Shown here: one piece after another, positions 6,773-47,591 of the stretch | Position numbering within the stretch: the stretch's first letter is position 1 | Layout of the letters: every line of letters begins with the position of its first letter | The notes under the pieces: model-generated | Told to the model about the DNA's origin: nothing | The model's input: only the letters and a program-made list of their open reading frames with translations | Database searches by the model: none | Translations under genes and position numbers: made by a program | Assembly: GCA_022661535.1 (NCBI GenBank) | Contig: JAKULF010000004.1 | Coordinates: forward strand, 1,240,001 to 1,304,000 | Length of the DNA: 64,000 nt | Reading direction: 5' to 3' | Source of the DNA: Eutypa lata | Taxonomy: Eukaryota > Ascomycota > Sordariomycetes > Xylariales > Diatrypaceae

Positions 6773-6799
6773 TATAGTTCACTGGAAACTACTGACGAT

Positions 6800-23424: not shown

Positions 23425-23758
23425 TCACCTCCTATCAACTGACCTCTTCTTCTTGGTTGTGGTGGTAGCAGTTTTTTCTTTAGACTTAGACTTGCCGCCA
23501 CCATACCCTCCTTCCACAGTAGTGACGGCGCCATTGTTACTATTTCCTCCTGCAGACGGAGTGCTATTTATTCTACCGCTGGTATGAGCTGGAGTGGTGC
23601 TGTTAGCATACGCAATTTGTGCATCACTAGGGAACATCACAAAGGTCGTTCCTAATAAAAACTAGTGTACAGGATTCTGTCGGCTTTCTGAAAGTCGGCG
23701 CTGGTGCCAAGGAATACAGGATATTGGGGGTTTAGGTCGGTAGCGTATGCTGCCCTCT
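23425..23758 (-). pseudogene. MAT1-2-1-type copy A: middle-exon fragment lacking exon 1 and HMG box
   Basis: Homologous to exon 2 of copies B, C and D. It starts after an acceptor-like CTAG at 23759-23762 and translates to N-P-Q-Y-P-V-F-L-G-T-S-A-D-F-Q-K-A-D-R-I-L-Y, matching copy B N-P-S-F-Q-D-R-V-Y-L-G-T-I-A-D-F-D-K-V-G-I. A TAG at 23654-23652 and a frameshift follow; coding similarity resumes at 23640 and reaches a Lys-rich linker (G-G-K-S-K-S-K-E-K-T, then K-K-K-R) matching copy B. The similarity ends there at a stop at 23425, and no HMG box follows. Exon 1 is also absent: the position it should occupy is covered by the gene at 23855 on the opposite strand. It is the most truncated of the four copies. 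Confidence 0.65.
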
Positions 23759-23854
23759 CTAGGTACCTACTTCAAACAGAGCGTATCGGGATGCCCCTCG
23801 ACTATTATACAAAATTCGCAACTTACAGATCCAAAAACCTAGTTCAAAGAAAGA

Positions 23855-24457
23855 ATGCCGAAACCTCACATAGTAGCAGAGGCGCGACTTCCCGCGGTCC
23901 TTTCGTTCACGGCCGGGCCGGATCCGGACCTTACCATCTCCCTCAGGCTGGTCGACGCGCAGACGCCCATCACTATTGCCAAAGACGCCCAACTCCAGGT
24001 TTTCATGGCGACAAACGCCGTTCTCATCCGCGAGGCGGCTAGCCAGCAGAACATTGCCTTGCCTACTCTCGACGTCAACATGAAGTCAGCACCGCCGCTG
24101 AGGCTGGTCCCCGAGGAGGCTGTTGCTGCCAAGTCCAAGTTCGTGACGCTGGAGCCTGGAGTGAGCTGCGATATCCTCCGGGTCCCCTTCCGGCCGCGGG
24201 GTGCCACGCGGAAGAGTGTCGAGGGCGCAAGGGCCGAGACGGCCCGGGACGGGTTCTTGTTTGCTCAGCTGGGGATGCATCTGCTAGAGCCGGGGCGCGA
24301 GTACACCGTGCAGGTCAAAAGCGGCGTGCGCATCTCGTCATGGATGGAGGGGAGGGTCGAGGATCTGATCCAAGAAGGACCGGGCGAGTGGCGGCCGCGC
24401 CCGGATGCGATTAACGTTTTGCCTGCCGAGGGGTTTCGTTTTAGGGTGGAGGATTAA
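23855..24457 (+). CDS. Hypothetical fungal protein, beta-rich
   Basis: Intronless frame of 200 residues from ATG at 23855 to TAA at 24455. The composition (alternating hydrophobic strands, many Pro/Thr/Val, no long helix or membrane segment) resembles a widespread family of small fungal proteins that open with a P-H-x-x-x-x-A-x-L-P motif followed by T-I-S-L-R-L strands. Function unknown. It is GC-rich and shows no RIP damage although it ends only about 400 bp before the AT-rich block. Its 5' end is divergent to copy A of the MAT1-2-1-type gene. Confidence 0.7.
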   Translation: MPKPHIVAEARLPAVLSFTAGPDPDLTISLRLVDAQTPITIAKDAQLQVFMATNAVLIREAASQQNIALPTLDVNMKSAPPLRLVPEEAVAAKSKFVTLEPGVSCDILRVPFRPRGATRKSVEGARAETARDGFLFAQLGMHLLEPGREYTVQVKSGVRISSWMEGRVEDLIQEGPGEWRPRPDAINVLPAEGFRFRVED

Positions 24458-24847
24458 AGGGGAGGGGGGTAACCTTAAATGAACCCGAATAATCGTGAAA
24501 CAGAACGAGATATGATAGGCAGGGCAACAGTTTCTCTAAAGATTGATCTCCGTATCTAGTATAGGTATATGAACATCACTAAATCTGCGGTGAGCTACCA
24601 CCTATATTACACCAAAGTAGGATCTGTCTTAAATATTGATGTTATATAAGAGCCGCCCTAATAAAACACCACTAGATTAAGCCCAGAATCAATAGGTTCA
24701 TCATGATATAGCTTTTAACCGCTACCCGAATTAGATACTTCCAAATGCAGCCTTCTATAGCCTTACATAGCAGCACCGTTTGAATCGAATAAGCGTGCAA
24801 CGTCTGTTAGCTTTAAATATATTATCTTTATATCTTTAAAGAGGTAG
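24458..24847. other. 3' flank leading into the AT-rich block
   Basis: Mid-GC, non-coding transition of about 390 bp. GC content falls sharply after about 24900. Confidence 0.5.
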
Positions 24848-24973
24848 TGTGGGTGGGTCACGTGATTCGGTCATTAGATAGGTCTTTTCATTATTTAACT
24901 TAATAAAGAAATATTTAAAAAATATAATTATAATTATATCTTTAGTTTTATTTTATTATTATAATATTTTTAT
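24848..24973 (+). repeat. Left direct terminal repeat of the AT-rich block
   Basis: Begins TGTGGGTGGGTCACGTG and corresponds base for base to 37735-37860. Its outer 60 bases keep many G and C that are A and T in the right copy. It opens with TG, as LTRs do. Confidence 0.65.
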
Positions 24974-27900
24974 TAATATATAAAAGTAAAATTTAAATAA
25001 TTAAATTTTACGAATTACTTTAAGAATTTATTTTATTATTTAAAAATTAAATAAAATATTTATATTTTAATTATTTTATAATTATTTAAAAAAATATTAA
25101 AATTATTATTTTTATTTTCGTATTAAATTTTTTAATTTTATACGATTTCTTTAATTAATTAAATTAATTTATATTTTAAATTAATTAAAAGTTATATTTA
25201 TTTATTTTTTTATTTTTTATTAAAAGATTTATTATTTTATAATAATTAAAAGTTATTTATATATTTAATTATTATAATTCGAAAAAATAAAAAAAAGTTA
25301 AAAATTTTTTTTTTAAAAAAATAAAACGTATTTATTATAAATAAAAATTAAATTTTTAATTTAAGTTTTTTTTAATTTTAATTTATATTATTTTAAGTTT
25401 ATATAATATTTTTTATTTTATTTATATATTAAATTAATATAATCGTTTTTAAAAACTTTTATTTATTTTATTTTTATTAAAATAATTTAATATTTTTTAT
25501 TTTTTAATTAAAGAAAATTATAATTATTAATTATTATAAATTAAATTATTAATTATTTAAATAATTATATAAATTATTATTTTTTTTATTATATATATTA
25601 TAATTTTCGTTATAAATTTTAAAATATTTAATTAAAGTTAAAAAGTTTATATAAATAATTAAAAAATACGAAAATATTTTAATTATTTTCGAATTAACGA
25701 TTTAATTTATTAACTTTTTAAAATTAATTTTTAAATTAATAATTTTATTAATTTTTATATTAACTTTTAATAATATTTTATTAATTTTTAAATTATTTAT
25801 AATTAAAATAAATTAATTTATATTTAAAAAAATTTTAAATTTTTTTTTAAAAAAATATATTAATAATTTAAAGTTATATATAAAGAAATTAAATTTTATA
25901 ATAAAAAAAATTAAAAAGATTAAGTTTTATTTTTTATTTAAAAATAATTTATAAAATAATATAAAGTTTTAATATTTATAACTTTTTAAATTTAAATAAA
26001 TAAAATATAATTTTTTAAAATTTAATTTTAATAAAAAACTTTTTATTTAAATAAAAATAAATAATATTAAATTTATTTTAAAAATTAATAATTTTAAATA
26101 TTAATTAAAAAAAAAGTTTTTTATTTTTATAAAATAAATTAATAAGTTTTTAAAAAAAATTAATAATTATTAATTATATAAAAAAATTAATAATTTTAAA
26201 TTTTAATTATTTTATTATTAAAGATTTTTAAATTTATATTTACTTTAAACGTTTAATATAACGAATAAATATATTAATTATTATAATAAATATATTAATT
26301 ATTATAATAAATATCTTTAATATAAATATTTTTAATAAATATATAAATATAATTAATTAATTAATAAAATAAATAAAATAACGATTAATAAAATTTAAAA
26401 TTTTTTAATTAAAAAAATATAATTTTTTTTTATTTAATAAATTTAATATAATTTTAATAATTATAAAAATAAAATATATTTTATTTTTATATATTATAAT
26501 TATAATTATAAAAAATACGTATTTTTTAATTATTTATATTTAAATTAATTATTTTAAATTATTCGTTAAATTTAAAATATTTATAATTATAATAAATTAA
26601 TTTTAAAGTTATTAAAATTTAAAAAAATATTAAAATTTATTAATATAAAAATTAATTATATAATTAAAAAAAAGTTATAAAAACCTTTTAATTTAAATAA
26701 ATATATAAATAATTTAAATAAAAAAATATTAAATATTATTAAAAAATTATTATTTTTTTATTATTAAATTTATATAAAAAACTTAATTTATAATATCTTT
26801 TTTATATATAAATATTAATAAAAATAAAAATATATTTCGGCGAAAATTTATTTTAAATTAACGATTTTTTTCGTTTAATTTATTAATTAAATTTTAATAT
26901 AATTTAATAAATCTTTATAAATTATTATTTAAATTTAAAAAAATTAATTCTTTTAATTTTAATTTTATAAATATAAATAATTTTATATAACGCTTAATAA
27001 ATATTAAATTTTATATATATAAAAAGATTATAAAATTATAAAAATAAAACGATATAATTTCGATTTATATATATAAAGATTATATTAAAAATTAAATTAA
27101 TATAAATAATTTATTTCGTATAACTTTTTTTTAATATTATATAAAAATAATTTTTAAATTAAAATTTAATTATAAAAACTTAATTTAATAAATAACTTAA
27201 ATTATTTATAAAAAAACGTAAATTTAAATTATTATTAAAATATTATTTTTTTATATTTATATTATATTTTATTTATATATATATTAATATAAATAAATTT
27301 AATTAAATTAATTAAATTAAAAATAATAATAATTAAATTTCTTTTTAATTTATTAATAAAAAAATAAACAATATATTTATATATAAATATTTTATTAATT
27401 ATAAACTTTTATTAAAATTAATTAAATTTAATATTATTATTAAATTAAAATTTAAAAAACTTAAATTTTAAAAAAAATATAAATTAAAAATACTCGATAA
27501 TAATATGTTTTTAATTAATTATTACGTAATTTTTTCCTTTATTATTAATAAAATTTATTTAATAATTAAAACTTTTATTATAAATATAAATAAATTTTAC
27601 GATTTATTATTAAATAAAAATTAATTATAATAAAATTTCGTTAATATTAATTTTAAAATTAAATATTTTATTTTTATTAAAATTAATAAATAATTTTATA
27701 TTTTTTTAATAAAACTTACGATTATAATTAATTTAATTTCGATAAAAAAAAATCGATTTATAAAAAAATAACTCGATTAACTTTTATAAAAAATATAAAT
27801 TCGAAATTATTTAATGTAAAAAATAATAATTTTTTAAATAATAACGATTTAAAGTTTAAAAAAAATTTAAATATTATCGTAAATTAATAAAAAAATTATT

Positions 27901-30900
27901 TAATATTATTAAATACGTTATTATATAAAATCGAAAACGTTAAATTTAATTAAAAAATTAAAAAAAGCTTAAAATAAAATTAAACTTTTATAAATTATAA
28001 CTTTATAACTTATAATATTATTATTTAAACTTAATTAAAACGAATTATATTTATTAAATTTATTATTATTATTTTAAATTCTTTTATATCGTTAATTTTT
28101 AATTTTTTAATTTAAAAAAAAATAAATCGTTATATTATTATCTTTATTACGTTTATTTTTATTAAACGAAGTTTATTAAAAACGAATTTATAAATTATAA
28201 ATTAAATTTTTAATTTATATTTAAAAATTAACGATTAAATTTAAATATTTATTTAAATATCTTTTTTTTATATATTAAAAAATAAATTTAATAAATTTTT
28301 TTTAATTATTTCTTTTTAATTTAAAATCGAAATTATTAATTAAAAAAACGTTAATAATTTTTTTTAATAATAATTTATTTTTACTTTTTATTTTTTATAT
28401 TATATATTATAATTTCGATTATTTTACTTAAAATTCGAAAATTTTACGTTAAATAAAATTAATAATAAATTTATTTATTATATTATTATATTTTTTATAA
28501 ATATAATTAATAATTAAAATAAAATTAATTTAATTTTAAACGATATTAATAATAAAATATTAACTTTTAATATTATATTATATAATAAAAGCTTTAAAAA
28601 AAGTTTTAAACTTTATTTAAAAAACGAAAAAAAAATATTACGTATAATTAATATAAATTTAAATTTATATAAATTAAAATTATAAATTTATTTTTATAAA
28701 TTTATTATTAAATTTTTTATTATAACTTTTTAATTTCGAATTATAATTTAAATAAATTTAAAACGATTAATTATAAATTAAAAATTATAATAAAACTTTT
28801 TATTAAATAATTTTTAATTTATAATTAACGATTAATTTAATAAATTCGAAATTATTATTAAATTAATAATAAATATATTAAAAAATAAGTTTTAATTAAA
28901 TAATTATATTATACTTAATACGATTATTTTATCGAATCGTTTAATAATATTCGAAATATAAATTTAATTAAATATTATATTATTATTAATAAAAACATTA
29001 AATTTTTTTAATTAAAATAATTTAAATATATTTTTAATAAAAAAGAATTTATTAATAAAGTTTATTTTTAAACAAAAAAATTAAATAAATAAAATATATA
29101 TTTTTAATTTTTATTAAAAAGAATAAAAATTATTAAATCGTTTAAAATTATAAATTAATTAATTTCGTTATAATTAAACTTTAATAATTAATTTATAATT
29201 AAAATAATATATTTAATATATTATTTTAAAAGAAATATAAAATTTTTAATTAAAATAATATTTTTTATAAATATTAATTAATTAATATTTAAAAAATTAA
29301 TTAATTTAAAATTTTATTTATTAATTTTAATAATTTATAATTAAATATTTAAATGTTATAAAAAATAATTAAATTAATATATATATATTATATTTTAAAT
29401 AATTTAAAATTTAAAAAATAATTATTATTTAATAAAATAAAAACTTAAAAATTAATATTATTTATATTAATAAATTATTATTTTAATTAAGATAATTTTT
29501 TTAATATATTTATTAACAATTATAATATTTTTATTAAAAAGTTTAATAAAATATTTAATTTTTTTTATTATTATTATTTTCTTCGTTTAAATTTTATATT
29601 TATTAATATAATATTTAAAAAAAAAAGTTTTATTTATAAATTTAATTAAAGTTTTAAAATTTAAACTTTTTTAAAGAAAAATTTAATTATTAAATAAATA
29701 TTAAAATCGATTTAAAAATTAATTTTTAATTAAAAATTATTTTAAAAATTAAAAAAAAATTAAAAAAATTATTTTATTTAATTTTATATTTACGTATTTA
29801 TATATTTAATTATATAAATTTTATTAAAATTTTTAAAAACGTTTATATCAAGTTTATTTAAAAAAAAACTTCTTTTAAAAAAGAATTAATATAACGAAAA
29901 ATTATTTTAAAACTTTTTTTTTAAAAAAAAACTTAAAAATAAATATTTATTATTATATATTATAAAATTTAAAAACGAAATATAAAAAATTTAAATATTA
30001 ATTAATAATATTATTTAACGATTAATATATCGTTAATAAAAACGAAATTTATTTTAATTAATTAATAAAAATCATTATAATAAATACGTTAATATTTTTA
30101 ATTAATATTTTAATATTTTTTTATTTAAATTTTTAAATATAAAAATTAAATATATTATTAAAAAAAAAAGCTTTAAAAATTATTAAATATTTAATTAAAT
30201 ATAAATAAATAATAATTAAATTATTTTATTTTATTATATTATATATTAATTATATAAACTTTTTTAAATGTTTAATATAAAATTAAATATATATAAAAAA
30301 TTTTTTATTTAAATTAAAAAATTAAATAAATATTAATTTATTATTTATTATAAATTAAATATTATTAAAATTATTAAAATTATAAATAAATTTTCGAAAT
30401 TAATTAAATTTATACGAAAATAATAAATTTTTAAATATTTTTATTTAAAAAAAGCATTTTAAAAATATTAACTTTATAATATAATTATAATAACGATAAT
30501 AAAATAACTTATTATATAATTATATAATATAAATTATAAAAAAAAATAACTTATATAATATATTAATATTTTAATCGTTATAAACGAAAAAAAATTATAA
30601 AAAAACGCTTAAAGATTTATTAACTTTACGAATAATTATAAAGTAATTTTTAAAGCTTTATAAATTATTAATATATAAATTAACTTTATAAATCGTATTT
30701 AAAAAATAAACGTAATAAAAATAACGCGAAAACGAAATATAAATTTTAAAATAATTTAAAATAAATAATAAATTATAAATAATATTAAAACTTTATAAAT
30801 AAAAATTAATAAACGTATTAAAAAAATATTATAAACGTAATATTAAAAATTAATAAATAATTTAATTTATTTATAATAACTTTAAAAAGTAAAATATAAA

Positions 30901-32005
30901 CGTTATAACGTTAAATTAAAAAATTAAATAAAATACGTAAAAGTATATATAACGCGAAAATAACGAAAATTAAACGATAAATATATAATAAAACCGCTTA
31001 AACGCTTTTATTATTTTTATTTTTATTATTATTATTATTATTATCGTTTTTATTATTATTTTCTTTAAAAAAAACAAAAACGTTATAATTATAAAACTTA
31101 TTTATTAAATAAATATTTAAATAATTTATAATAAAAACTTAAAATATAAACGTTAATAAAGTAATAACGTTATAAGTTAATTATAAAAATAAATTAAATA
31201 ATTTTTAATACTTTTAAAAGTAATAATAATATAAACGTTAAAATTTTAAAAGAAAAAATTAATATTTTAAAAAAGCATAAAAGCGAACGTAACGAAAGCG
31301 ACGTAAATACGCAAAGCATTAACGACGAAATAATCGCGTAAAAGTTAAAAAGCGTAATTTTTAACTTTAACGAAAATAACGATAATTTAAAAAAAAACAT
31401 AACGTTAAAGATATAATAACGTAATTATAACGAAATAAAATATATTTTAACGTTTTTATTATTATAAACGATAACGATCGTTTTAAAAGTAATAATTATT
31501 TATATAATAAAAAAATTAATTAAAAATTAAATATATATTAATAAAATCGTAACGAAAAAGTAATAAAAACGTAACGTAATATATATAAAAACAAATATAA
31601 CGTAAATTAACGTAATTTTAATAATTATTATTAATATTAATTTAATTATAACATTTATAATTAAAATTAATAATTAATTAAATAACGTAATTATAATAAT
31701 ATAATTAATAAATATCGTTTTTTTAAAAAAAATAATATTTTTTTTTATAATTATTATTATAATTAATATTATAATTACTTTATTATTAATATAAATTAAT
31801 TATATATATAAATAATAAAAAATTTAATAAATTAATTTTTTTATTATAATCGCTTTTAATAATAATAACTTCGTCGTTATAAATATATTTAATAATAAAA
31901 TTTAAAAACTTATTAAAAGTTAAAATAATAATAAAACTTATTTTAAATATTAAAATAATATATTATCGTAATATAAATATAATAAAATAATAATAATTAT
32001 TTATT

Positions 32006-32007
32006 AA

Positions 32008-32046
<39 letters not shown>
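32006..32046. repeat. TTA trinucleotide microsatellite
   Basis: About a dozen TTA units inside the AT block, followed by looser TAA/TTA sequence to about 32075. Confidence 0.7.
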
Positions 32047-32047
<1 letters not shown>

Positions 32048-33410
32048 ATAATAATTATTATTATTATTATAATTATTTTTTAAATATAATATTAATATAA
32101 TTTAAAGAAAAATAACGTTATAATTACGAAAAAGCTTATTTATTAAAAATAATAAAAAAAAACGAAAATTTATAATTAATTAACGTTTATATTACTTTAA
32201 TTAAAATAACCGTTATTTTAATAATTATAATTATTATACATCGAAAATCTTTATTAAAATTTAATAATATATTAACTTAATAAAGTTTAAATAATAAAAA
32301 ATTATTATACGTAATAATATAATTATTAATAAATAACGATAAAATATTTATTATTTATATTATTATTAAAAAAAAAAAGTTTATAATAATTAATTTTTTT
32401 TAAATAAATATTATAATTATTAATATAATTATTTATAAAAAAAATAAAGTTATTTAAATATATAAAAAACGATATTATCGTTATAAATAAATAATTTCGC
32501 GTTATAAAAGCCGCGTTTATATTATAAACGTATTTATATATAATTTTTTAATTATTTAATTATATTTTTAATATATTAATATATCGTTTTTTAAATTTTT
32601 TTAAATAATTAAAAGTTATAATAAAGTTAAAAAATAAACATTATTACTTCGAAAGAATAACGTATTTATTTATTAACTTAAGTAATTTTTAATAAATAAA
32701 TTTTTTTTTATTTTATTTAAATTTTTATAATAATTATTATATATTAATTAAATAAATAAACATTTAATAAACTAACGATATAACTTTATAATTATCGCTT
32801 TATAAATGTAATAATTAAATAATATATAAATTTTATTCGTTTTAATAATTTATTATATAAAATATATATTATAAATTTATTATATATTATATATTTTATA
32901 TAAATAAATTATTAATATAAAAATAATAATAATAATAATTATTATTAAATTTAATATTAAAAAATTTCTTTTTATTATATTAATTATAAAATAAATTTAA
33001 AAACTTTTTTTTAATTAATTTAATTTTTAATTAATTTATATATTATTATTTTTTTCGAATTATTAAATAATAATAATTTTATAATTAATATAATAAAAAT
33101 TAAATAAATTTTTAAATTATTTATAAAATTATATATAAAAATAAAATAATATAACGATTTAATTTATTATTTAATTTTAAAATTTAAATTTATTAAATAA
33201 TTTATTATTAATTAATAACGTTTATTTATTAAAAATATAATTAAATATTATATTATTAATAACTTTTTATTTTAATTAAAAAATAATAATAATATAATAA
33301 AATATATTTTATTTAATAAAATTAATTTAACTTTTTTATAAATATATAATAATTATTTTAAAAAATTTAATTTATAACTTTTAATAATTTATATAATATT
33401 TAAATATTAT

Positions 33411-33937
33411 AACGATATAAAATATAAAAGTTGCTTTTAATCGTTATATTATTAAAAGTAAATACGTTATTAACTTAAAGATTAATCGCTTTATATTACT
33501 TTATATAATACATTTATAAAATATTATTTAATATTATAATAATAAATTCTTTTTTAAAATAAATTACTTTTAATTTATCTTTAAAATATATTAAATAAAA
33601 TCCTTTATTTAAAGTTATTTAAGTTTAAATAACTTTAAAATTATACGTCGAATAAAGCTTTATTTTCGAAAAGTACTTTACGTTATTTTATTACGTTATT
33701 AAAATGTTATTATATATATCGTATTATTAATAAATTATAAAAAAATAATAAGTTTAATTAAGATTTAAACGTATAACTTATAAAAAGAAAGTTAATAAAT
33801 TATAACGATATAAAATATAAAAGTTATTTTTAATCGTTATATTATTAAAAGTAAATACGTTATTAACTCGAAAATTAATCGCTTTATATCATTTTATATA
33901 ATATATTTACGAAATGTTATTTAATACCGTAATAAAT
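33411..33937 (+). repeat. TRIM-like element, copy 1 (527 bp with 135-bp terminal direct repeats)
   Basis: Bases 33411-33545 recur at 33803-33937 with few changes (both begin AACGATATAAAATATAAAAG), enclosing about 257 bp of unique sequence with no coding capacity. The whole unit recurs at about 35203-35697. Short terminal direct repeats, a very short interior and multiple copies fit a terminal-repeat retrotransposon in miniature; RIP-eroded. Confidence 0.55.
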
Positions 33938-35202
33938 ATTATTAAATATTATTAACGTTATTATATATATAATAAAATCAAATTAAAATTTTTTTTAATT
34001 ATTAAAATAAATAAATAATTTCGATAAAATTATAAAACTTAATTAATATAAATTTTATAAGCTTTTTCGTTTTCGTTAAAATAAATAAAAATAAATATAT
34101 ATTAATAATAATTAATTATTTTTACTTAATTTATATTTAAAATAATAATTAATAAAATATTTTAATTTAACGTTTTTAAATTTTAAAAATTTTTATATAA
34201 TATTTTCGAATATTTTTAATAAATATATATTAATAATAATAATTATTTTAAATACTTTTTAATTAAAGCATTTTTTAATTATTAAAAATTAAAGTTTATT
34301 TATAATTTAATTTATTTAAAATAATATTACGAAATAATTAAAAAAATAATTAAATTAATTATTATTTAATTATATAAATAAATATTTAATATTAAATATA
34401 AAAAATTAAATTAATAATTTAATATTTTATTTAAAATATTTATTAAAATTAATTTATAAATAATAAAAGATTATAATTTATCGCTTTTATAAGTTTTATT
34501 TAATTAAAAAATAAAATTTATAATTAAGATTTTAAATTATAATTATTTAATAATTATTATTAATAAATTCGAAAAAAAAATATTAATTAATAAAAAAAAT
34601 ATAAATTAATAATATAAGAATTTTTAATAAATAAAAATATATATTAAAATTTAAATATTATATATAAATATAAAAAGAAAAATTAAATATAAAAATACAT
34701 TAAAAATTAAAATTAACGAAAACGATAATTTTAAAAAAATAAATTTAAATTTAATATAAACGATAATTTTAAAACTTTAAAATTATTATTTATTTAAATT
34801 AAATTATTAAAAATATATTAAGTTATATTTAATATTTTAATAAAAATTATTAATTTTATTAAAAAAAATAAACTTTATAAAATTTATATTAATAATTTTA
34901 AACATTTTAAATAAAATATTTTATTTAATATTATATATTAATAAAAACGATTAATTTAAATATTTCGTATTTAAATATAAAAAAAATTAATTTTAAGTTT
35001 TAAATTAAAAAATTAAAAAATAATTTTTAATTAAAAAATAAAAACGATAAATAAAAAATTAAAATAACGAATATTAAGATTTTTTAATTATATTTTTTTA
35101 TATTATTATTATTTTTTTATAATTATTTTATTAATTTTTAATTAATATTATTAAAAAGAATTAAAAAAATAAATAATTAATATATAAAAGATATTTTTTA
35201 AA

Positions 35203-35697
35203 AACTATTTAATTATATTATTAAAAATAAATACGTTATTAACTTAAAAATTAATCGCTTTATATTATTTTATATAATATATTTATAAAATATTATTTAA
35301 TATTATAATAATAAGTTTTTTTTTAAAATAAATTACTTTTAATTTATCTTTAAAATGTATTAAATAAGATTTTTTATTTAAAGTTATTTAAGTTTAAATA
35401 ACTTTAAAATTATACGTCGAATAAAGCTTTATTTTTAAAAAGTATTTTACGTTATTTTATTACGTTATTAAAATATTATTATATATATCGCATTATTAAT
35501 AAATTATAAAAAATAACAAGCTTAATTAAAATTTAAACATATAATTTATAAAAAAAATTAATAAATTATAATAATTTAAAATATAAAAATTATTTAATTA
35601 TATTATTAAAAATAAATACATTATTAATTCGAAAATTAATCGCTTTATATTATTTTATATAATAAATTTACGAAATATTACTTAATATCGTAATAAA
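35203..35697 (+). repeat. TRIM-like element, copy 2 (left repeat shortened)
   Basis: Matches copy 1 along its length, including the internal segment with TTATACGTCGAATAAAGC. Right terminal repeat at about 35567-35697; the left repeat lacks its first ~35 bases. Differences from copy 1 are mainly C/T and G/A plus small indels. Confidence 0.55.
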
Positions 35698-37734
35698 TTA
35701 TATACTTTTTTATATTATTATTAATGCGTTTATTTTATTAATTTTATTTAATAATTAATTTATTTTTAATAATCTTTTTAATAATTTTATTTTTTATAAT
35801 TTATTTTTTAATTAATTTTTTTTAATTTTATTTTTTTAATAATTAATTTTTAATTTTTTAAATATTTAACTTTTAAATAATTAATATTAATTATTTAAAT
35901 TATAAAAATTAAAATTTATAAAATCTTTATTATTTTAACGATTTTATTATTTAAAATGCTTTTTAAAAAATAAATATTAACGTTTATAAAATTAAAAAAA
36001 ATTAATATCGTAATTTTTATTATTAAAATAAATAAAATTTATTTAAATAATAAAAAACGAATTTAAATTATTATTACGCTTATTAATTAAAAGAAATTAT
36101 ATATATTAAAGTTTATATTTTATTTATATTAATATTTTAAATTAATTAAAAAAAAATTAATAATAATTTTTATTATATTTTTAATATAAATTAATTAATT
36201 ATATTTTATATTATTTATTTTAAAACTTTAAATAAAAAATTATTATTTTTTAAAAAAAATTATTTAATTAATTATATTAAAAGTATTTTTTAAATTAAAT
36301 TTAAAAAAATTTAAAATTTTATAATTTAAATTAAACGAAATAATTTAATAATTTATATCGATTTTTATTTAATTATTTTTAATTTAAATAAAAAAACGAT
36401 AATAATTAAATAAAAATTAAATAATTATATATTATAATTTAATTAAATAATTTATATAATTAAAATTATTAATAATTATATAAATTATAATAAAAAATAA
36501 TATTTATAAATATAATTTTCGATAAATTTTTATAAAAAATTATTTTTATATTAAAATAATATTTTTTTAATATATTTTTTTTTATGAATTAAAAAGTTTA
36601 TTAATACGTATAATTATATATATTATATTCGAAATTTAAAAATATAAAAATTATTTAAATATTTTTTATTTTTAAACGATAAAAAATTATTATTTAACGA
36701 TAATATAAATAATTTAATTAATAAAATAAAAAGATTTATAAAAAAGATTTATATTTATATTATTATTTTAAACGATAAATATAAAAAAAAGATTTTTTAA
36801 TTATTTAAAAATATTAATATTTTAATATATAAATATAAAATGTTAAAAGATTAAATAATTTCGTTTAATTTATATATAAATTAAATATTAAATAAAATTA
36901 AAAAGTTAATTAACGATATTATTATTTTATATAAAAAAAGTTAAAGTTTTAAAAATTAATAAATTATTAAAAAGATATTTAATAATTTTATTATTATAAA
37001 ATATAAAAAATTAAATATTTTATTTCGCGAATATTTTATTAATTATAAAAAGTTTATAATTATTTATTAAAATCTTTAAATAAATACGTTATATAAAAAA
37101 ATATTAAATTAAAAAATATTTATAAATTAATAAAAAATTATTAATAAAAATTATTTAAATAAATTAAATTTAATTAATAAAAATATTATTAATTTTATTA
37201 TTTAATTTAAAAAATAAAAAAAGAAATTTATTATATTAAAAAAAATCATTAATATTAAAAAATTTTTTATTAAAATTTAATTAATTAAAACGTTTATTTT
37301 TTATAATTAAAATAAAATCGTTAAAATTATTAAAAAACGAATTAAAAATTTTAATAAAAAAATAAATTTTTTAATTATTAAAAAAATTATATTAATATTA
37401 AATATTATAATTAATATTTATTATATTAAAAAATCGATTTCGTTTTTACTTTTACGTAAAAAAATCGTAATAACTTTTATAAAACATTTAAATTTTTACG
37501 ATTTTTCGTTAATTATTAATAAATTAAACATTATTAACTTTTAATTTTTATAAAAATTAATTAAAATAAAATTTTAAAAATAATAATAAATTTAAATAAT
37601 ATTAAATTATTAAAATTATTTAAAATTAATATAAATTATAAAAATTATATATATTATATAATTAATAAAAGTTTTTAATTTTTAATTTTTTTATTTTATC
37701 GATATAATAATCGTCGACGAATAATTTAATTAAA

Positions 37735-37860
37735 TATAAATAAATTACGTAATTTAATTATTAAATAAATTTTTTTATTATTTAATTTAATAAAAAAATA
37801 TTTAAAAAATATAATTATAATTATATCTTTATTTTTATTTTATTATTATAATACTTTTAA
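37735..37860 (+). repeat. Right direct terminal repeat of the AT-rich block
   Basis: Counterpart of 24848-24973. The inner part is fully converted to A/T except one CpG (ACGT), while its outermost bases keep a C that is T in the left copy, so mutation fades outward at both ends of the block. Confidence 0.65.
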
Positions 37861-38234
37861 TGGTTATTATATTAAAAATATACTTATTTAATAAGGTCAC
37901 CTGAACTTGAGGAGCAATCACGTGGTGGTGCCCCTTTTGGGGTTGTTGGTCTGTCATACGAAGTAAAGACTACCGTTTCCGGATCCTAAAACATTCAGTC
38001 CTGGGGCCTTATGTGTCACGTAGGCATCATTTATACTTATGCAATGTCTCTAGTGACGTCACTAGATTCTATCGCCGTCTGCCTATAGCTCCCAACCACA
38101 TGTATGCGCCTAGCTGACAACCTTAGGGTCTAGATTAATTACTCTGATGAGATATATTTCTTCCTTAATTTATCAATCTTTTATATGCATTAGCAGATAG
38201 GTCTACTAATAGGCTTCTCGCCCTCTTCCGACTG
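37861..38234. other. Right flank of AT-rich block; no gene seen
   Basis: GC content returns to normal within about 60 bp. No coding frame or RNA gene recognised. Confidence 0.45.
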
Positions 38235-39011: not shown

Positions 39012-39221
39012 CTAGCCTTTGGTGGGCTTGTTAATAATTTCGTCAGCGACTTGGTCTAAGGCTCTTTGGATATCTTCGTCCACCCGGATCTTGGCGTTCT
39101 GACCGTTTTGGATCTCCAGAGGAGCATCATTAATTATGGTATCGTATGGCGATATCGACGACCTGGATTCTCCGCTCCGAAAGACCACCGGTTTGCGGGT
39201 TATAAGCCTTAAACATCGCAA
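39012..39221 (-). pseudogene. Open frame fragment, unrecognised
   Basis: A 69-codon frame ending with an acidic, helix-like tail (I-R-V-D-E-D-I-Q-R-A-L-D-Q-V-A-D-E-I-I) before a TAG. The same frame stays open for about 50 codons beyond the TAG, so that stop may be a recent mutation. It lies downstream of copy B and is not similar to it. Confidence 0.25.
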
Positions 39222-39598
39222 GCTAGGTGCCGCTCCTCAAGAATGTAGCCTACCAAATTTCACTAATAAACTTAAGGTCGCGGTCGCTGATAACCTTGCA
39301 TAGGAGACCCCACTCGAACAGTTGGGGAGCCCTAAGAATAAGCTCAGCCCAGTTCTCTGCAATATATGTAATAGTGATGGGAAGAAAAATGGGATAGGGT
39401 CTAGATGGTTGTTGTATTACATATCTTTCATGCTAGCTAGAAAAGGCAATGGAATGGGCTACCGCCCTACTTATGCGTTTGCCTCCGCCACAGCTACCAC
39501 TCGGCATCTTGCCCAAATTAACCGAGAATCCGAGCATCCCAGTTCACGTTCAATGACTCAGTTGTGATACGGTGAATAGTCTATATAGTGCCACCATA
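39222..39598. other. 3' flank of copy B; no gene seen
   Basis: Mixed sequence with an unsupported 81-codon plus-strand frame at 39322. Nothing else recognised. Confidence 0.4.
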
Positions 39599-40995
39599 TT
39601 AGTTTCCGTTGGGCATCGCAAATGACTCTTCATGCTGGCCGATGCCCCAAAAGTCCACCTCATCGTTTTCACCCCTAAAATCTTGTCCGAGGTTGAAGCC
39701 TCCATCATATTCACCAATAGGGTTGTAAATAACCTCGCCGTTATTCTCGAAGATATCCATGCCTTTGTTCTCAAAGACAGCCGCGGCATTGTCCTCCAAG
39801 ATAGCCTTGCTGTTATGGTCCTTATCGTGGCTTGTTGTAACCGGAGCCACTTCTGAGGCAAGGCTGAGGGTGGCGGCAGGACCGGCAGCGGGAATGTCCT
39901 TCTTGCCGCCATTTCGACGGTGAATCTGGTCGGGACGCCGACGCTGGAACCCGTAGGTTGGGTGTTCCTCGTGAAACTTTCGGTCTTCCTCGGCTGCCCG
40001 GCGAATCCATATAGCCCGTTCGTGGGCAGGGAGACAGCGCCATCTTCTCCCAATTACCTTAGCTATAGCGAGAGAAAGAAAATAGATAATAAAAGTTAGC
40101 GTTGCTGGTTATATATTGAGAGGTAAATACAATGGAAAAAGGTAAGAAAAGATTAAGAAATTAGTGATAGGATAGCGATCTATGTTAAGTAGGTAGGAAT
40201 ATATGGCACTCACAGCGCTCCTTGAATGGCATCTCGGCATCAATCATCGGTTGTTCGATAGACATTCTGAATAGGATAAAGCTATTCAGAGGGCGTGCGT
40301 GGGATGCCCGATGCTGGTGCCCTTGACCTCCTCTTCTTGGTTGAAGTAGTACCTGTTGTCTTTTCTTTGGACTTACCGCCAGTGGGATCCTAACCCACAG
40401 CGGTGACGTCGTTATTGTTGCCGTTGATAGTAGAAGCACCATTGTCACGTTTGGCATGTTTATTCTCAGGGGTCATAACTGCAGGCTCATGGTAAAGAGC
40501 CGCATGTAAGACAATGCCGACTTTGTCGAAGTCGGCAATAGTACCTAGGTAAACTCGGTCTTGAAAGCTTGGATTGGTAGCAAAAGTTGCAATGCCTTGC
40601 TGGGCTTGGCTAGAATTTAGTTGTTAGTTAATACAACATATTTCTTTTATGTAATGGATGTGCTGGAGAGGGTTGGAAAACTTTGTCAACTCTGTATTGA
40701 TTGCTCATCACTGGTGACATTATAGTAAATAAGGTGTTACGAAGGGTGAAGTAATATATATGTACAAATAAGAGGACTTGGAAAGATGCTGAGAGAAAAT
40801 TAAATAAATCTAAAATATTTACCTCATGAAGCTACAGATTCTAGCCTTTTCATCTAGACTCCAATTGTTATACCAGATACTGGGGATTACAACGATTTTA
40901 TTAAACATGCTGAGCTGGATTTTCAGCATGTTCCACGCGTCGACCATACGGTCCATACCCCAAGGGTCCGTTACCCCTTGGTTAATGGCGTTCAT
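39599..40995 (-). pseudogene. MAT1-2-1: MAT1-2-1-type HMG-box gene, copy B (frameshift and premature stop)
   Basis: Three exons on the minus strand: 40995-40823 (173 nt, exactly as in copy C), 40609-40214 and 40062-39599; introns 213 and 151 nt. Exon 1 encodes the N-terminal domain with an I-Q-L-x(8)-V-V-I-P core. Exon 2 has R-V-Y-L-G-T-I-A-D-F-D-K-V-G-I and a Lys-rich linker. The HMG box (I-P-R ... L-N-S-F-I-L-F-R-M ...) is split by an intron inside a Ser codon, the conserved MATA_HMG position, and continues S-K-V-I-G-R-R-W ... E-R-A-I-W-I-R-R-A-A-E-E-D-R-K-F-H-E-E-H-P-T-Y-G-F-Q-R-R-R. A 143-residue acidic tail follows. Defects: a TAG at 40392-40390 in the linker and a 4-bp tandem duplication (ACGC) near 40290-40300 that shifts frame inside the HMG box. 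MAT1-2-1 is a nuclear sex-determining transcription factor. Divergent to copy C. Confidence 0.75.
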
Positions 40996-42792
40996 GTTGA
41001 CCTAGGAGTCAATCGTTGTGTCTAATTGACGAATCCGTAGGTAAAACGAATGAGGATACGGGTAGTGGATGGACGATGTGAGTAGAGGATGATACAAGTA
41101 GGAGAATTGATTGAGGCAGATAGAATAGATTGGTATTATAATGAAGGTGAAGATAGGATGAAGAGTAATAAAAGGTAAAAAGAAGTGAGAAGGGTTTGGT
41201 TGGACCTAAGCAGGAAGTCATACGCAAGGAAAAGAAAGTGGGAAATTAATATTGTGCTTGGTGGGTGGAATGTCGTTGCCTGCGTAAAGTTTTACGGTGG
41301 GGGACAAGGAATCACTACAGTGGAAGAAATGTAGCTGGAAAATGAAGGTGTCGATGGCCTTGATAGGTGCCCTGTATGTTGACCTCCTGGTATGAATGGC
41401 AGGGTCATCACGATACATACAGGGCACGTACCGCCAACGACACCTAGGCTTCGATTACCTGACCAATTACTGATCTGATTTAAGGCTAATCTGCTTTTGG
41501 CTTTGATATGACATGTATTTTATAGGTAATAATCTGTTGTGATGCAGTACACAACAGCTCCAATTTAGCTGATTTAGGTCTCTAGATCAACCTGTTTATA
41601 AGCATATTGTTATTACCCCTGGATTTTATGTAATAAAGATACACGTGTTCTTGATTAGATAATTAGTTCTTATGGCACGTATTTGAATCACAAAGTATTT
41701 GATAGGCATTGATTGGGAACTTTAGCCTTATTTACTAGTATTTCATATATTGATATTGCTACATTGGCAACCTACGATAGATACGCTCCCAGATCTGAAG
41801 AAATAGGAATGTTCTTTACTTCTCTATATCTATTCTTCTCTACCTACTAGTAGTGGGTAATCTCAGCACAACTGATACTGTAATTTGTATATGGCGTTAT
41901 AGGACGTGTTCTTTAGTAGTCAACTCATTTTCTTCCTCTTCTTGTCTAGTGAGGCACAACAAGCAATCTGAACGTAAATACCTTTTAGAGAATTAATACA
42001 ACATGAGTCATGCAATCGATTGTAGAGTAGAAGCGGCACAAACGCAGAAACACATTATGGTAATTAGAGGTCCGGCCATACCCCCAGAAGAAATCAAGCA
42101 ACGAAGAGGTGAAAGGAGAGCAAACGCGGTAACGAATATGAAGGACTATTTAAGCACCCAAGGATAAAATGGAACTTCACTTGTGGTGTATGTATAAACT
42201 TGACACGCATAGGTGGTCAATGGCTTTGGGAGTGACCTAATCATCTATAAAATGCCACCGGCAGAACAGGTTTTATAGCATGTGATAACCTGCATAACAC
42301 TAGCATACGCATCATCTGCGTACAAATTTTCTATTTTCCCTCAGGTATCAGTTTTATTCCTTGATCTAATTCCACTAAAGTCTTCTGCCTATGCCGGTTT
42401 AGGAGATAATGTTGACCATAACCGCCGACGATGTTATCAAATGTACTAACCATACCCTTCTGCCGTTGCGAAGGGTAATAATAAATGGCTTACCGGTTTT
42501 GGGAAATACAATAGGCTTATCATTGATTCTAGCTTTTGCTAATCATGTAGCTAGAGTGCTGGTTTCTAAGGATTCCTTGACCTGCACTTTTCTATTTCTA
42601 CTACTACTGCCACCACCTTTCCATCCCACCACCAACATTACCTATTCATACTTTCATCCATTCATCAACAAGACTTTCATCCATCAATATTCCATCTATT
42701 GATACTTCAGCCATCAATACTTTCATCTCTACGAATTGATTATACTTCGTTCTATTGATCAGCATTCATCAATCATCACGCCAACTGCTAAC
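40996..42792. other. 1.8-kb divergent intergenic region between copies B and C
   Basis: Shared upstream region of two head-to-head MAT1-2-1-type copies. Mid-to-low GC. Short frames at 41009-41427 (-) and 42409-42702 (+) have no motif. Pyrimidine-rich CCATCA/CTTTCATCCATC sequence directly precedes the copy C start, as in a fungal core promoter or 5' UTR. Confidence 0.45.
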
Positions 42793-44220
42793 ATGGACAA
42801 CGTACGAGGTATCGACCATGACGCCGAAGCTCTTAGGCACATGGCTGAAACCTGGAGTGTACTTCAGACCCAAATTAGCAACTCTAACCGCATCATTTCC
42901 ATCCCCAATGGTTGGTTTGAGAGTTGGACGCAATTTGGTAAAAAATTCATTCGGCGTTGCATGAAGTAAGATATTCATGTTTCCTTGAGCTTAACTACCC
43001 ATCCTGTGCTTTTACTAGTGGTCTTTTTTCGTGTGGTTCACCCTTCTCCTGCCCTTATTCAAAGTCAAATATGTCCCTGTCATCATGATATCCCGAAACA
43101 AACCCTACCAAGACTTCACTCATCAAATTCAGATTTCCATATCAAATGTGTGGGTCCTCTAATTCTTGTAGCGTTCTAAAGCTAATATCAAACTTTATCG
43201 TCCCTAAATTACCTCTCTTCTATATATAAATAATTGCCTAGTTACTAACCAAAACCTTTAGCACCGCTATTCGCAGTGACAACAATGTCATCTATGCTAT
43301 TGACGCCTTATTCAGAGACCGCATCTACCTAGGTGCGCTCGAAGACTTCAACCGTATCGGAGTCACATTATTGCCTCTCCTGGATCAATGGACCTTTGCC
43401 ATTGCTCCTCAGAACGGTCGCATGGTTTCCGACAACGGTCATCCTAATCCAACTCATGCGAATGATCCTCTTCTACCGGTAGGAGTAGATAGCCCGGCTC
43501 ATGCTATTGCACCAGAGAACAACTACAACGCCATCTCTTTCGCAGCCCAGGAGGACGCTCCTCTTCTATCAGCAGGGACAAACAACCCAGCCCACAGTCT
43601 CGTACAAGGTCACGACAACGATGCCGCTACCGCTACCCAGGATTAGGTATCCGACGGTCGCGGTAACGCATTGGATGGTTCTCGCAGGAAGAGCCGAGCC
43701 AAGAAGCCAGCAAATGGCATTCCCCGTCCTCGCAATTCCTTCATAATCTACCGAGAACACGTGAAGCCGGATATCAAGGCGAGAAACCCGAAGATTTCGT
43801 TTATAGAGCTTTGTAAGTTTACTATTACACCATATAAAAATCATCTACCTACATGGGACTATCTAATGTCAAATTCCATTTTCTGTTGTCTCGTACCTTA
43901 CCTCTTTACCTCCTTACCCTATTTCCTCACCTCGTTCTTTTCCTCACTGTAACCTAAGGTATATTCGAGACTACCGCTAACTTTATCATTTAATCTTTCT
44001 CCTGATTATAGCTCGAGAGGCTGGAAGAATGTGGGCATTAGAGAGTCAACATGTGGTGGATGAATTTCGCGGCCGCGCGGCAGAAGAGAAGCGCCTGTTT
44101 CGCTTAGCTCATCCCAACTACATTTATCAGCCGAGGAAATCTAACCAGATCAAGCGGAGAGATACTGCCGCAAAGAAGGCGGCCGCTGCGAAGAATCGCC
44201 ACGGTAACATCGGAGAATGA
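42793..44220 (+). CDS. MAT1-2-1: MAT1-2-1-type HMG-box transcription factor, copy C (most complete; in-frame TAG in linker)
   Basis: Three exons: 42793-42965, 43262-43812 and 44012-44220, sum 933 nt (310 codons plus stop). Exon 1 carries the N-terminal domain with W-S-V-L-Q-T-Q-I ... I-I-S-I-P, laid out as in Neurospora mat a-1. Exon 2 carries D-R-I-Y-L-G-A-L-E-D-F-N-R-I-G-V-T-L-L and a Pro/Ala/Asn-rich linker, then the basic start of the HMG box (R-R-K-S-R-A-K-K ... I-P-R-P-R-N-S-F-I-I-Y-R-E-H). The last intron (199 nt) splits a Ser codon (T|CT) inside the box, the conserved MATA_HMG site, and exon 3 completes it with G-R-M-W-A-L ... E-E-K-R-L-F-R-L-A-H-P-N-Y-I-Y-Q-P-R-K. A single TAG at 43647-43649 interrupts an otherwise continuous frame; it could be removed by a 45-nt in-frame intron (43605-43649), read through, or be a true lesion. 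Role by homology: mating-type control. Confidence 0.72.
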
Positions 44221-45403
44221 ACCCAGATTAGGGGTATATCAGAGGTGGTGGTCGCGAAAAGAAATCCGGCTACCAAAAATGCAGATTCAGCACTGTTTGT
44301 GCTTATGGGATTTCCTATGTATCACAGATTGCCCTAGCGGGCATAGCTTTCTAGTCTTTCGTAGTGTGGGCTATGTATAATTAAAGTCCTCTCTTTTCCT
44401 TAAGCTGCTGCCATGAAGCTGCTGAGTGTTCAGAGCCTCTAGGATATTATAAATCTTCCTCCTACTGCACATTCCCAGCCCTTCAACTTACCCACCGTCC
44501 ACCGCGGGGTGGTTTACCTTGGCTCAGGAAATCAGCAGATTATAGCGTAGACCAATTCATGCAAAATAGATGACTCTGAAATAGTCAGCTTACCAATTTT
44601 AAGTAGATATTCTAAAACGCATATCCAGAAAATATTTAGACGCCTTGTGCATTGAACAAGATTAAACATAGGAACACCTTGAAAAGGGTACCCGTAGCAA
44701 CAGGTTCCTGGCAATAAGATTAAGCTTCATATATGCCCAGTATTATAATAGGCTACTAGTACCTTTATAGTACCTTTATAAGAGGTGGGAGACGAAGGAT
44801 AATTCTTCTGTACATCCTGTAGGTTGTTTTATTTTTGTGCCTACTACCCGATCTTATATTATTTATTTGCATTTGCTACAATAATTTATTTCCCTCCATT
44901 GTCGAAACTTTTTATTTAGATAATCCCTCTGGTAACTAACGGTAAATTCATGTAAAATGCTCCAGTAGACTAATTTCCCCGTGGCTATGGATATTCGTGA
45001 TAGCCTCACATACCCTAGTACTACGGTTGCCACCACTACCATTGCCACCGTTGGCAACAGCATTGACATGAACGATGGAATATGATGGGTGCCTTGTTTC
45101 CTACAGGGTTTGCGAACTTGGTAATACCCATAGTAGCAATATCAAGTTCACTTATGCCGTTAACCTGCCGAACGTTCAGTTCTAAAAGCCCTACACCACT
45201 ACACGCCTTAACTAAGCATACATATCCATTCTACAACACTGTACACATCCCAAATCTGTATCCCTCTTCATCCTCATTCACCTTCATCAGAACCCCATTC
45301 AGTCAATATTTACCCTCTTTACTTATCATTGATCTATCTACAGCAACTATCTATCTTTCAGATTAATTAGAATTAATCAATTTGTACCACTGCCACCGTC
45401 GTC
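44221..45403. other. Intergenic between copies C and D
   Basis: About 1.2 kb, mid-to-low GC; unsupported short frames at 44532 (-), 44863 (-) and 45082 (+). Presumed 3' flank of copy C and promoter of copy D. Confidence 0.45.
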
Positions 45404-45540
45404 ATGGATTCAGCATTCGTTCCCGACCCCTCAGTTGAGGAAGCCATCCAAACCATGAAAGGGATCTGGGATATTCTCAAAGCCCAGATCAACGAGTTTA
45501 AGAGAATTGCCGCAATTCCTCATAGGTGGTTCGAGACATA

Positions 45541-45646
45541 AGGCAAACCCCCCCCTCACGGACCACCCCCCTCACGGCCCACTTACACAAATATGTTTAA
45601 AAATAAATAACAAATCGAATAAAATCCCTAAAAATAAGCGGTTTAA
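45541..45646 (+). repeat. Left terminal inverted repeat
   Basis: Pairs with 46921-47025. The first 45 bp are nearly perfect and C-rich, with an internal direct repeat CCCCCCTCACGG; the rest is AT-rich with transition differences (e.g. ACACAAATATG versus ATACAAATATA). Confidence 0.85.
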
Positions 45647-46920
45647 AGATTTAAATAACTTAATAAATCTTGTATATAGAAATGATTTGATAAGAAATTT
45701 AATTTTTAAAGTTAAATTTATATTAATATTTATATAAAATATATATTATAATATATATTATATTATAATTAATTAAATAAATTATATTATTTATATTTTA
45801 TTAAATATATTAATTATATTATGGAGTAAAGACGTTATATACGTATTATAATTATAAATGTACGTATAATAAAAAATTAAAATTAAAACTTTACGTTTTT
45901 ATATATATAAATTAATAAACTTTAAAAGTAAATTAAATATTAAAATTAAATTATAAGGTATAATATTATTATAACTTTAAGTTTATGTTAATTAAACATT
46001 TATAAATAAAATGTAATATAATATATAATGATAATTATTTTATTTTATTATTAAAATTAATTTTTAAATTATATTATATATATTTCTTAAATATGTTTCG
46101 TTTATATTAAATATTTAAAATATATTATAATACGTATAATATGAAATAAAAATTATATTAATTATAAATATAATATTATAATAATAACATAAAAAAGCTT
46201 ATATTTTTAACATTTTTATTTAATTAATTATATTAAAAAACGTTAAAGGAATTTCGAAAAAATAAGTGCATTTTTAAAAGTGGATAAATATCCATTTAAT
46301 ATATATTAAACATTTTAACATTTTAAATCGTAATTAATTAAATAAAATATATATAAATATATTTCCTTTTTAAATATAAACTGTAATATTAATATTAAAA
46401 TATAAAAATAATAAATAATATATTATTATAAAGCTTTATATATTTAACGTTATTTTAAAAGTTTAACTTTTTATTAATATATTATATATAATATTTATTT
46501 AAACGTTAAAAATTAATATAATTAATTAAAGTTTAAAAGAAATTTACTTTAATTACAAAAGTGATTTAATCTTATAATGCATTTACCCGTATATTTATAT
46601 GTAATTTTCTTAATTTGTTATTAAAGTTTAAAATTTAAGTTAAAATATTTTAAAAATTAAAAATTAAAAATTATTTTTTATAATTTTTAATTATTTTTAA
46701 TTAATTATTTTAATATTCGTTATATTATTATATAACGGTATAAAACGTAAAATCAACATATTATATTTAAAACGTATTTTATTTAATTAAATATATAATA
46801 TAATATTTATTTATATATTTTATATATATATATATATATAAATATCTTTTTTATTAATTAAAAAAGTATTTTTTTAAAAAAGTTTTTTCGTTAATGGATA
46901 TAATAATAAACTTAATACCG

Positions 46921-47025
46921 TTAACCGTTTATTTTTCTGAATTTTATTCGATTTGTTATTTATTTTTAAATATATTTGTATAAGTGGGCTGTGAGGGGGG
47001 TGGTCCGTGAGGGGGGGGTTTGCCT
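46921..47025 (-). repeat. Right terminal inverted repeat
   Basis: Reverse complement of the left repeat; ends ...GGGGTTTGCCT followed by the TA duplication. Confidence 0.85.
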
Positions 47026-47591
47026 TAGACACAATTCGATGAGGAAATCATCTGGACCCTCATGGGGTAAGATATTCAGATTCCCTTTACCTTTTCCTCA
47101 TTTCAATGCCCGGTTTACTTCTATTCAACAGAATTTATCACATGTATTACAAACGACACCCTTCTAGCATCTGTTTCTTTTCCCTCTGATGAGTATCAAA
47201 TCAAACTGTATTACTACGATAGCCCAAACTAAACCCTCCCTGAGTATCCCATACCATATAACTATCCTCAGACTTGATCAACCAATGGACATCTTTCCAA
47301 CTTTACCAGGTCAACTATGTTTTATATAGACAGGGTTTATCTTGGAGCAGAAGACGACTTAAAGAGTGTCGGCTTTATGATTTCCCAATACAACACGGTC
47401 GTTGATGACAATACCATCGCCAGTGTCTTCGCAGCCAGCAAGGTCGCGCCACTAACGATTGCTTCCCAGGGCTAGGTGCCTGATGGAAACAATCTGCTAG
47501 ATAACTTGTAGTGAACGGCCAGCTAACCCCTTGTCATATAGTTAGGGCCCATTCATCCTCCCCCGCGAGCTCAAAGGTAAAGGGTAACCTC

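What the first reader, a model, noticed from the sequence alone, without database searches (positions are those of the whole stretch)
23425..47591. Cluster of four MAT1-2-1-type HMG-box gene copies in different stages of decay
Copies A (23.4-23.8 kb, -), B (39.6-41.0 kb, -), C (42.8-44.2 kb, +) and D (45.4-47.6 kb, +) share protein similarity, an exon-1 boundary at the same codon (173 nt in B and C, 176 in D, each ending ATG xx|GTAA), and in B and C an intron in a Ser codon inside the HMG box, the known position in MAT1-2-1. The standard view is one MAT1-2-1 per idiomorph. Here there are several diverged paralogues, B and C head to head, C and D in tandem. They could be a duplicated mating-type locus, or a little-known expanded family of MATA_HMG genes. 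The protein divergence is large, so the duplications look old rather than recent.
Basis: partly seen in the sequence, partly recalled or inferred. Interest (0 to 1): 0.9.

Follow-up and report, generated by a model that had tools for sequence, protein, structure and literature searches.

The report
Stop-gated family of mating-type regulators
A Eutypa-like fungus carries at least fifteen diverged copies of a mating-type-like regulator gene, twelve of which have the same in-frame UAG stop in an RNA hairpin just before the DNA-binding part, a stop that is likely removed by RNA editing during sexual development.

Summary
The paralogue cluster is real, but its most striking feature was missed. The window's copies belong to a genome-wide family of at least 15 MAT1-2-1-type HMG-box genes on six contigs. 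Twelve of 15 carry an in-frame TAG between the N-terminal part and the HMG box; nine of these twelve otherwise read as complete three-exon genes (one is open to the end of the stretch read). In 12 of 12 the A of the UAG lies unpaired in a hairpin loop; 11 of 12 close a 7-nt N-U-A-G-N-N-N loop directly, like a tRNA anticodon loop. The stem covaries and exceeds codon shuffles (0 of 20,000). Eleven of eleven homologous proteins found end at the same residue, one of them Eutypa lata UCREL1_4345. Known sexual-stage A-to-I editing in Sordariomycetes favours UAG in hairpin loops. Best reading: UAG-to-UGG editing likely switches on HMG proteins during sex. There is no RNA evidence, and one published base preference (+3) is met by only 5 of 12. 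No MAT gene was detected near SLA2 and APN2, in line with reports that Xylariales lack canonical MAT regions.

The parts
39599..40995 (-). Copy B: MAT1-2-1-type HMG-box gene, three exons (40823-40995, 40214-40609, 39599-40062), with a frameshift in the first half of the HMG box
   Evidence: second intron read by eye
40375..40405 (-). Hairpin of copy B with the in-frame TAG (40390-40392) in its loop
42793..44220 (+). Copy C: MAT1-2-1-type gene, three exons (42793-42965, 43262-43812, 44012-44220); open but for one in-frame TAG; 310 codons
43631..43661 (+). Hairpin of copy C with the in-frame TAG (43644-43646) in its loop
45404..47475 (+). Copy D, broken: exon 1 (45404-45540 and 47028-47066, split by an insert) and the start of exon 2 (about 47314-47475); HMG box not found
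   Evidence: exon 1 end counted
45541..47025 (.). Insert in exon 1 of D: inverted termini (84 of 90 bases alike), TA on both sides, 13% GC; looks like a mutated terminal-inverted-repeat transposon
   Evidence: borders read
47460..47490 (+). Hairpin of copy D with the in-frame TAG (47473-47475) in its loop
23430..23760 (-). Copy A: possible short relic resembling the exon 2 and linker of copy B; no in-frame TAG hairpin and no HMG box seen
   Evidence: weak similarity, partly by inspection

Best explanation
The window holds part of a family of at least 15 MAT1-2-1-type HMG-box genes, and the in-frame UAG that separates the N-terminal part from the HMG box in twelve of them is likely an A-to-I RNA editing site that would be read as UGG (Trp) in sexual tissue. 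Shown here: the family, the three-exon models, the TAG in 12 of 15 copies, the hairpin, its covariation, and related proteins that end at the same residue. Inferred: in vegetative cells translation would stop at the UAG and give a protein of 148-232 aa without DNA-binding domain; in fruiting tissue the Tad2-Tad3 deaminase with Ame1 would take the hairpin as a mimic of a tRNA anticodon arm and deaminate the A at the place of A34, so that the transcription factor of 287-496 aa can be made. That the TAG came from an ancestral TGG (Trp) by a G-to-A change, of the kind that repeat-induced point mutation makes, is a guess.
For: Of 13 in-frame stops examined in the linker, 12 are TAG; the 13th (C10:5651k, a decayed copy) is a TGA without such a hairpin and was left out. 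The A of the UAG is unpaired with P 1.00 in 12 of 12 folds of 83 nt. Consecutive pairs closing the 7-nt loop: 51 in sum over 12 copies, codon-shuffle mean 8.1, sd 3.7, maximum 28 in 20,000. Four or more pairs in 8 of 12 copies, against 36 of 1491 TAGs in the non-AT-rich part of the window, family sites included. Covariation score 0.50 against 0.21 shuffled (0 of 500) and 0.08-0.19 slid; RNAalifold draws the stem unprompted, with two-sided changes in 7 of 8 pairs. After the TAG: 1938 codons in nine models without a stop, shuffled mean 86, minimum 58. Pfam HMG_box in 9 of 9 models. Eleven of eleven homologous exon-2 proteins end at the same residue, among them E. lata UCREL1_4345, identical over 175 residues to copy C12:108k before its TAG. 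The class is Sordariomycetes. Published fungal editing strongly favours U before the A and hairpin loops and often turns UAG to UGG (PMC11156358, parts 1 and 2 of 3 read). Two DUF726 (Ame1-family) genes are present.
Against: No RNA was available: editing itself is unseen. The published preference for A or G at +3 is met by only 5 of 12 sites. Three of 15 copies lack the site (C12:105k, C10:5651k, relic A), all decayed. Three of the twelve TAG copies are broken otherwise (B frameshift; D insert and no HMG box; C21:713k a second in-frame stop and no exon 1 found). In copy 8b the first closing pair is a mismatch, and 21b has only 2 pairs; in 21c and 12b the U of the UAG is drawn paired. The linker around the TAG does not align as protein, so the sites are matched by frame, place and hairpin. 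In one search, 'pairs with a change on both sides' was reached by 86 of 500 shuffles and 'further pair types' by 20. The nine models were built with open frames in view, which favours the count. DUF726 genes also occur in Leotiomycetes, where editing has not been found (PMC11087585). No known edited gene was found as a positive control: of 141 kinase matches I read 5, none convincing.
Confidence: 0.8

Rival explanations
1. Translational read-through: ribosomes pass the UAG at some rate, without editing, aided by the hairpin.
For: Same TAG, same frame on both sides in nine copies, open frame after it.
Against: The hairpin encloses the stop and sets the A where A34 lies in an anticodon loop; the read-through signals I know lie downstream of the stop (recalled).
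Confidence: 0.08
2. An intron covers the TAG and is spliced out, so that no stop exists in the mRNA.
For: TAG is also a common 3' splice site; GT..AG choices that keep the frame exist in all ten copies tested. CHE1 homologues got such introns from gene finders, wrongly according to PMC11169179 (passages).
Against: The modelled introns have the same phases in the copies tested (intron 1 in ten, intron 2 in nine) and scores of 5.7-9.0; the best intron over the TAG scores 1-5, with no shared donor (a simple score of my own). A splice site does not explain a loop-placed, covarying TAG, nor why no copy has CAG.
Confidence: 0.06
3. All copies are pseudogenes that share an old nonsense mutation.
For: A, B, D, C10:5651k, C12:105k and C21:713k are broken.
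Against: No stop in 1938 codons after the TAG in nine models; 12 invariant residues in and at the HMG box; exon 3 open and 64-68% identical in two relatives; covarying stem.
Confidence: 0.05
4. The TAG is the true end of an N-terminal protein, and the HMG part is translated separately.
For: The public E. lata protein ends at the TAG. In 3 of 9 models an in-frame ATG lies between TAG and HMG box.
Against: In 6 of 9 models the first in-frame ATG after the TAG is already inside the HMG box; frame kept across the TAG in nine of nine.
Confidence: 0.03

Closest known systems
CHE1 of Fusarium (PMC11169179, passages read)
   Same: A transcription factor whose DNA-binding domain lies behind a conserved in-frame TAG, predicted in a hairpin loop and edited to TGG; annotations often end at the stop.
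   Different: One zinc-finger gene in closely related Fusarium species, edited in hyphae; here an HMG-box family with 12 such stops in one genome, editing not yet seen.
PUK1 and about 70 other premature-stop-correction genes of F. graminearum (PMC4817773, passages; PMC11156358, parts 1-2 of 3)
   Same: In-frame UAG to UGG editing needed for a full-length protein in perithecia; U before the A, hairpin loops.
   Different: What I read names no mating-type-like family with a shared site; the full gene lists were not seen.
MAT1-2-1 of Sordariomycetes
   Different: At least 15 dispersed copies, away from APN2 and SLA2, with a stop before the HMG box; the N-terminal motif matches MAT a-1 only weakly (1.6 bits).
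Putative MAT1-2-1 of Eutypa lata (PMC9007359, passages read)
   Same: MAT1-2-1 homologue unlinked to sla2 and apn2, in all 40 isolates.
   Different: The passages speak of one gene and of no stop; which copy it is cannot be told here.

Membership tests
MAT1-2-1 (mating-type HMG protein) | HMG box of the MATA type | tested here: inconclusive
   Pfam HMG_box in 9 of 9 models; the family profile gives recalled N. crassa MAT a-1 81.7 bits and three other HMG proteins of this genome 70.4, 33.8 and 21.4. The cd01389 model was not available and the reference sequence is from memory.
MAT1-2-1 (mating-type HMG protein) | Intron in a Ser codon inside the HMG box | tested here: met
   Phase-1 intron in the Ser codon in nine of nine models tested; that this is the MAT1-2-1 position is recalled
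MAT1-2-1 (mating-type HMG protein) | Lies at the MAT locus, next to APN2 and SLA2 | tested here: not met
   SLA2 C5:3.533 Mb, APN2 C5:3.558 Mb; no HMG match there; about 12 kb between them was not read
MAT1-2-1 (mating-type HMG protein) | Present in one mating type only, sets sexual identity | not testable with these tools
   one genome, no crosses
Premature-stop-correction (A-to-I edited) genes | In-frame UAG with its A in a hairpin loop | tested here: met
   12 of 15 copies
Premature-stop-correction (A-to-I edited) genes | A or G at +1 and +3 of the edited A | tested here: inconclusive
   +1 is the G of UAG in 12 of 12; +3 is A or G in 5 of 12
Premature-stop-correction (A-to-I edited) genes | Coding sequence kept after the stop | tested here: met
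   nine of the twelve TAG copies
Premature-stop-correction (A-to-I edited) genes | A-to-G change in cDNA of sexual tissue | not testable with these tools
   no RNA data
Genomes with mRNA editing machinery | Ame1 of the Sordariomycete type | tested here: inconclusive
   two DUF726 genes; the residues that set Ame1 apart were not checked

The most novel reading that the evidence does not exclude
In these Xylariales the missing mating-type locus has been replaced by a dispersed family of MAT1-2-1-type regulators, each locked by a UAG that only sexual-stage, anticodon-mimic editing opens: sex regulators gated by RNA editing instead of by locus identity.
Probability: 0.3. Interest if true: 0.95.

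Novelty: new variant of a known kind. Interest (0 to 1): 0.85.

Why it matters
Xylariales were reported to lack canonical mating-type regions (as cited in PMC7407469 and PMC9007359; the source paper was not held). A family hidden by a stop codon, at which annotation cuts off the HMG box in at least one case, may explain part of that gap, and turns the question of how these fungi control sex into a test at twelve known positions. Twelve diverged copies of one site in one genome are also a natural experiment on what the fungal editing enzyme needs from its RNA.

Tried and rejected
Duplicated MAT locus: not supported. A GRF zinc-ribbon search for APN2 gave other genes; Exo_endo_phos gave a gene I name APN2 from recalled features. 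The alpha-box search PF04769 found nothing but rang in no control genome either, so absence of MAT1-1-1 is not shown. Intron over the TAG: tested, disfavoured. PUK1-like control: 141 kinase matches, 5 read; in the best (C8:3.249 Mb) the frame before the TAG suggests a GTGAGT-type donor, probably an intron. A TAG in a DUF726 match lies where the frame changes, probably an intron. Structure prediction was not run. Literature: the listings show no paper on an edited stop in MAT1-2-1 or on editing in Eutypa. Of the five papers I saw passages of all five; none of those passages reports an edited stop in MAT1-2-1. The one paper speaks of CRISPR RNA editing in grapevine (passages). PMC5381528 holds none of the terms HMG, MAT1 or mating type in its main text. 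Two relevant papers were not held, and most subscription journals are missing, so prior print cannot be excluded.

Full report
What is there. The window is part of a 54.5-Mb fungal assembly (G000:C5). Its APC5 protein has one unnamed record at 100%; the nearest named ones are Monosporascus, Diatrype stigma and Biscogniauxia at 80-81%, and none of the 120 listed of 766 is named Eutypa. One family protein is identical over 175 residues to UCREL1_4345 of Eutypa lata. So the fungus is Eutypa lata or a near relative: Sordariomycetes, Xylariales, Diatrypaceae.

The family. Searches with the HMG box and with exon-1, exon-2 and HMG pieces give, with relic A, at least 15 copies on six contigs: C5 (window A-D), C8 (2), C11 (2, head to head), C12 (2), C21 (4) and C10 (1). 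Exon 1 was matched in 13 places (weakest E 0.06). Each search scores only its best candidates, so 15 is a lower bound. Ten copies compared in conserved blocks are 30-46% identical; the tree has one fully supported inner branch, which groups the two C11 copies with window C (97/96). The duplications look old.

Gene structure. I modelled introns in ten copies. Intron 1 is phase 2 in ten of ten, with a GTAAG donor in seven. Intron 2, tested in nine, is phase 1 in the Ser codon of the HMG box in nine of nine. Nine copies give a protein of 287-496 codons, open apart from one TAG at codon 149-233. Copy C8:1781k is open to the end of the stretch read, so its 440 codons are a minimum; for C11:60k I took the second-ranked acceptor. 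Nine of nine hit Pfam HMG_box. Invariant columns lie on both sides of the TAG.

The stop. Thirteen copies had an in-frame stop in the linker. Twelve are TAG; the thirteenth, in the decayed C10 copy, is TGA and was dropped from later counts. In C12:105k and relic A I saw none. Of the twelve, nine are the models above, B has a frameshift, D an insert and no HMG box, and C21:713k a second in-frame stop and no exon 1 found. The base before the stop is T or C in 12 of 12, after G and a purine in 11 of 12; the base after it is G in 9 of 12.

The hairpin. In 12 of 12 the A of the UAG is in a hairpin loop; in two the U is drawn paired. Read as a 7-nt loop N-U-A-G-N-N-N, the register of a tRNA anticodon loop with U33 and A34 (the comparison is mine), the closing stem has 0-8 consecutive pairs, mean 4.25; the zero is copy 8b, a mismatch followed by three pairs. 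Other TAGs of the same regions have 0.63 on average (n = 732). Shuffling codons on either side did not reach the observed sum in 20,000 trials, and arms joined from different copies give 2.3 on average. The covariation score, the share of paired cells and the cells changed on both sides exceed all 500 shuffles, and all slid pairings score lower; two other measures were reached by 86 and 20 of 500. RNAalifold draws the same stem on its own.

Relatives. Two protein searches gave eleven exon-2 proteins (P0002; ten). Eleven of eleven end at the residue before the TAG. Several are identical or nearly so and may be the same species; P0135 and P0136 are only 74-75% identical to their nearest copy. 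The query itself ended at the stop, and candidates were limited to about 61-194 residues, so longer proteins with an open site could have been missed. The kind of stop in the relatives cannot be seen from protein. Exon 3 of one copy is found in two relatives, open, with 68% and 64% identity.

Mechanism. Fungal A-to-I mRNA editing is done in sexual tissue by Tad2-Tad3 with Ame1. It favours U before the A, A or G at +1 and +3, and hairpin loops, like A34 of tRNA, and it corrects in-frame UAG to UGG in about 70 genes of F. graminearum (PMC11087585, passages; PMC11156358; PMC4817773, passages). The family meets the demands for U, +1 and loop at all twelve sites, and that for +3 at five of twelve. 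I conclude that the UAG is likely an editing site that makes the HMG protein a product of sexual development. Editing, its timing and the role of the proteins are inferred. The nearest known case is CHE1, a zinc-finger factor cut off by a conserved, edited TAG (PMC11169179, passages).

Origin. TGG to TAG is a G-to-A change of the kind made by repeat-induced point mutation (recalled), which the AT-rich block of the window suggests is strong here (7% GC in 24.9-38.2 kb). N. crassa MAT a-1 as I recall it has a Trp in the linker before its HMG box. Both are leads only.

Mating-type locus. SLA2 (named from its I/LWEQ domain) is at C5:3.533 Mb with APC5 nearby, APN2 at C5:3.558 Mb. No HMG box was found there. 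About 12 kb between them was not read, and the alpha-box search is not conclusive. [quoted passage not shown] lata is unlinked to sla2 and apn2 in 40 isolates (PMC7407469, passages; PMC9007359, passages).

Verdict. The cluster is confirmed as a piece of a larger family. What is new is the shared stop in an anticodon-like hairpin in twelve of its copies: a new variant of premature-stop correction, if RNA bears it out.

Noticed in passing
window 24900-38200: AT block with about 7% GC (4-9% in 2-kb steps within it), next to normal DNA; looks like repeats hit by repeat-induced point mutation.
   Followed up: partly
window 45541-47025: AT-rich insert (13% GC) with inverted termini (84 of 90 alike) and TA at both borders, inside exon 1 of copy D.
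   Followed up: partly
L027 (C10:5650277-5653408) and L032 (C12:103757-106858): Two further family copies with exon 1 and exon 2 but no recognised second half of the HMG box and no TAG hairpin.
   Followed up: partly
L043 (C21:727177-730329): A well-preserved copy outside the window; its exon 3 has relatives P0003 and P0005.
   Followed up: partly
P0133: Eutypa lata UCREL1_4345, a 175-aa hypothetical protein, ends exactly at the TAG of this family: the annotation probably misses the HMG box.
   Followed up: yes
L062 (C11:1.672 Mb), L063/L064 (C9:2.184 Mb): Two DUF726 genes, the family of the editing cofactor Ame1; which one would be Ame1 was not settled.
   Followed up: no
window 23843-24457: Open frame of 204 aa on the plus strand beside relic A, near the edge of the AT block; not identified.
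   Followed up: no
window 6799-6907: tRNA match of 109 bases (Rfam, 49.6 bits), the only Rfam match of the window at gathering scores.
   Followed up: no
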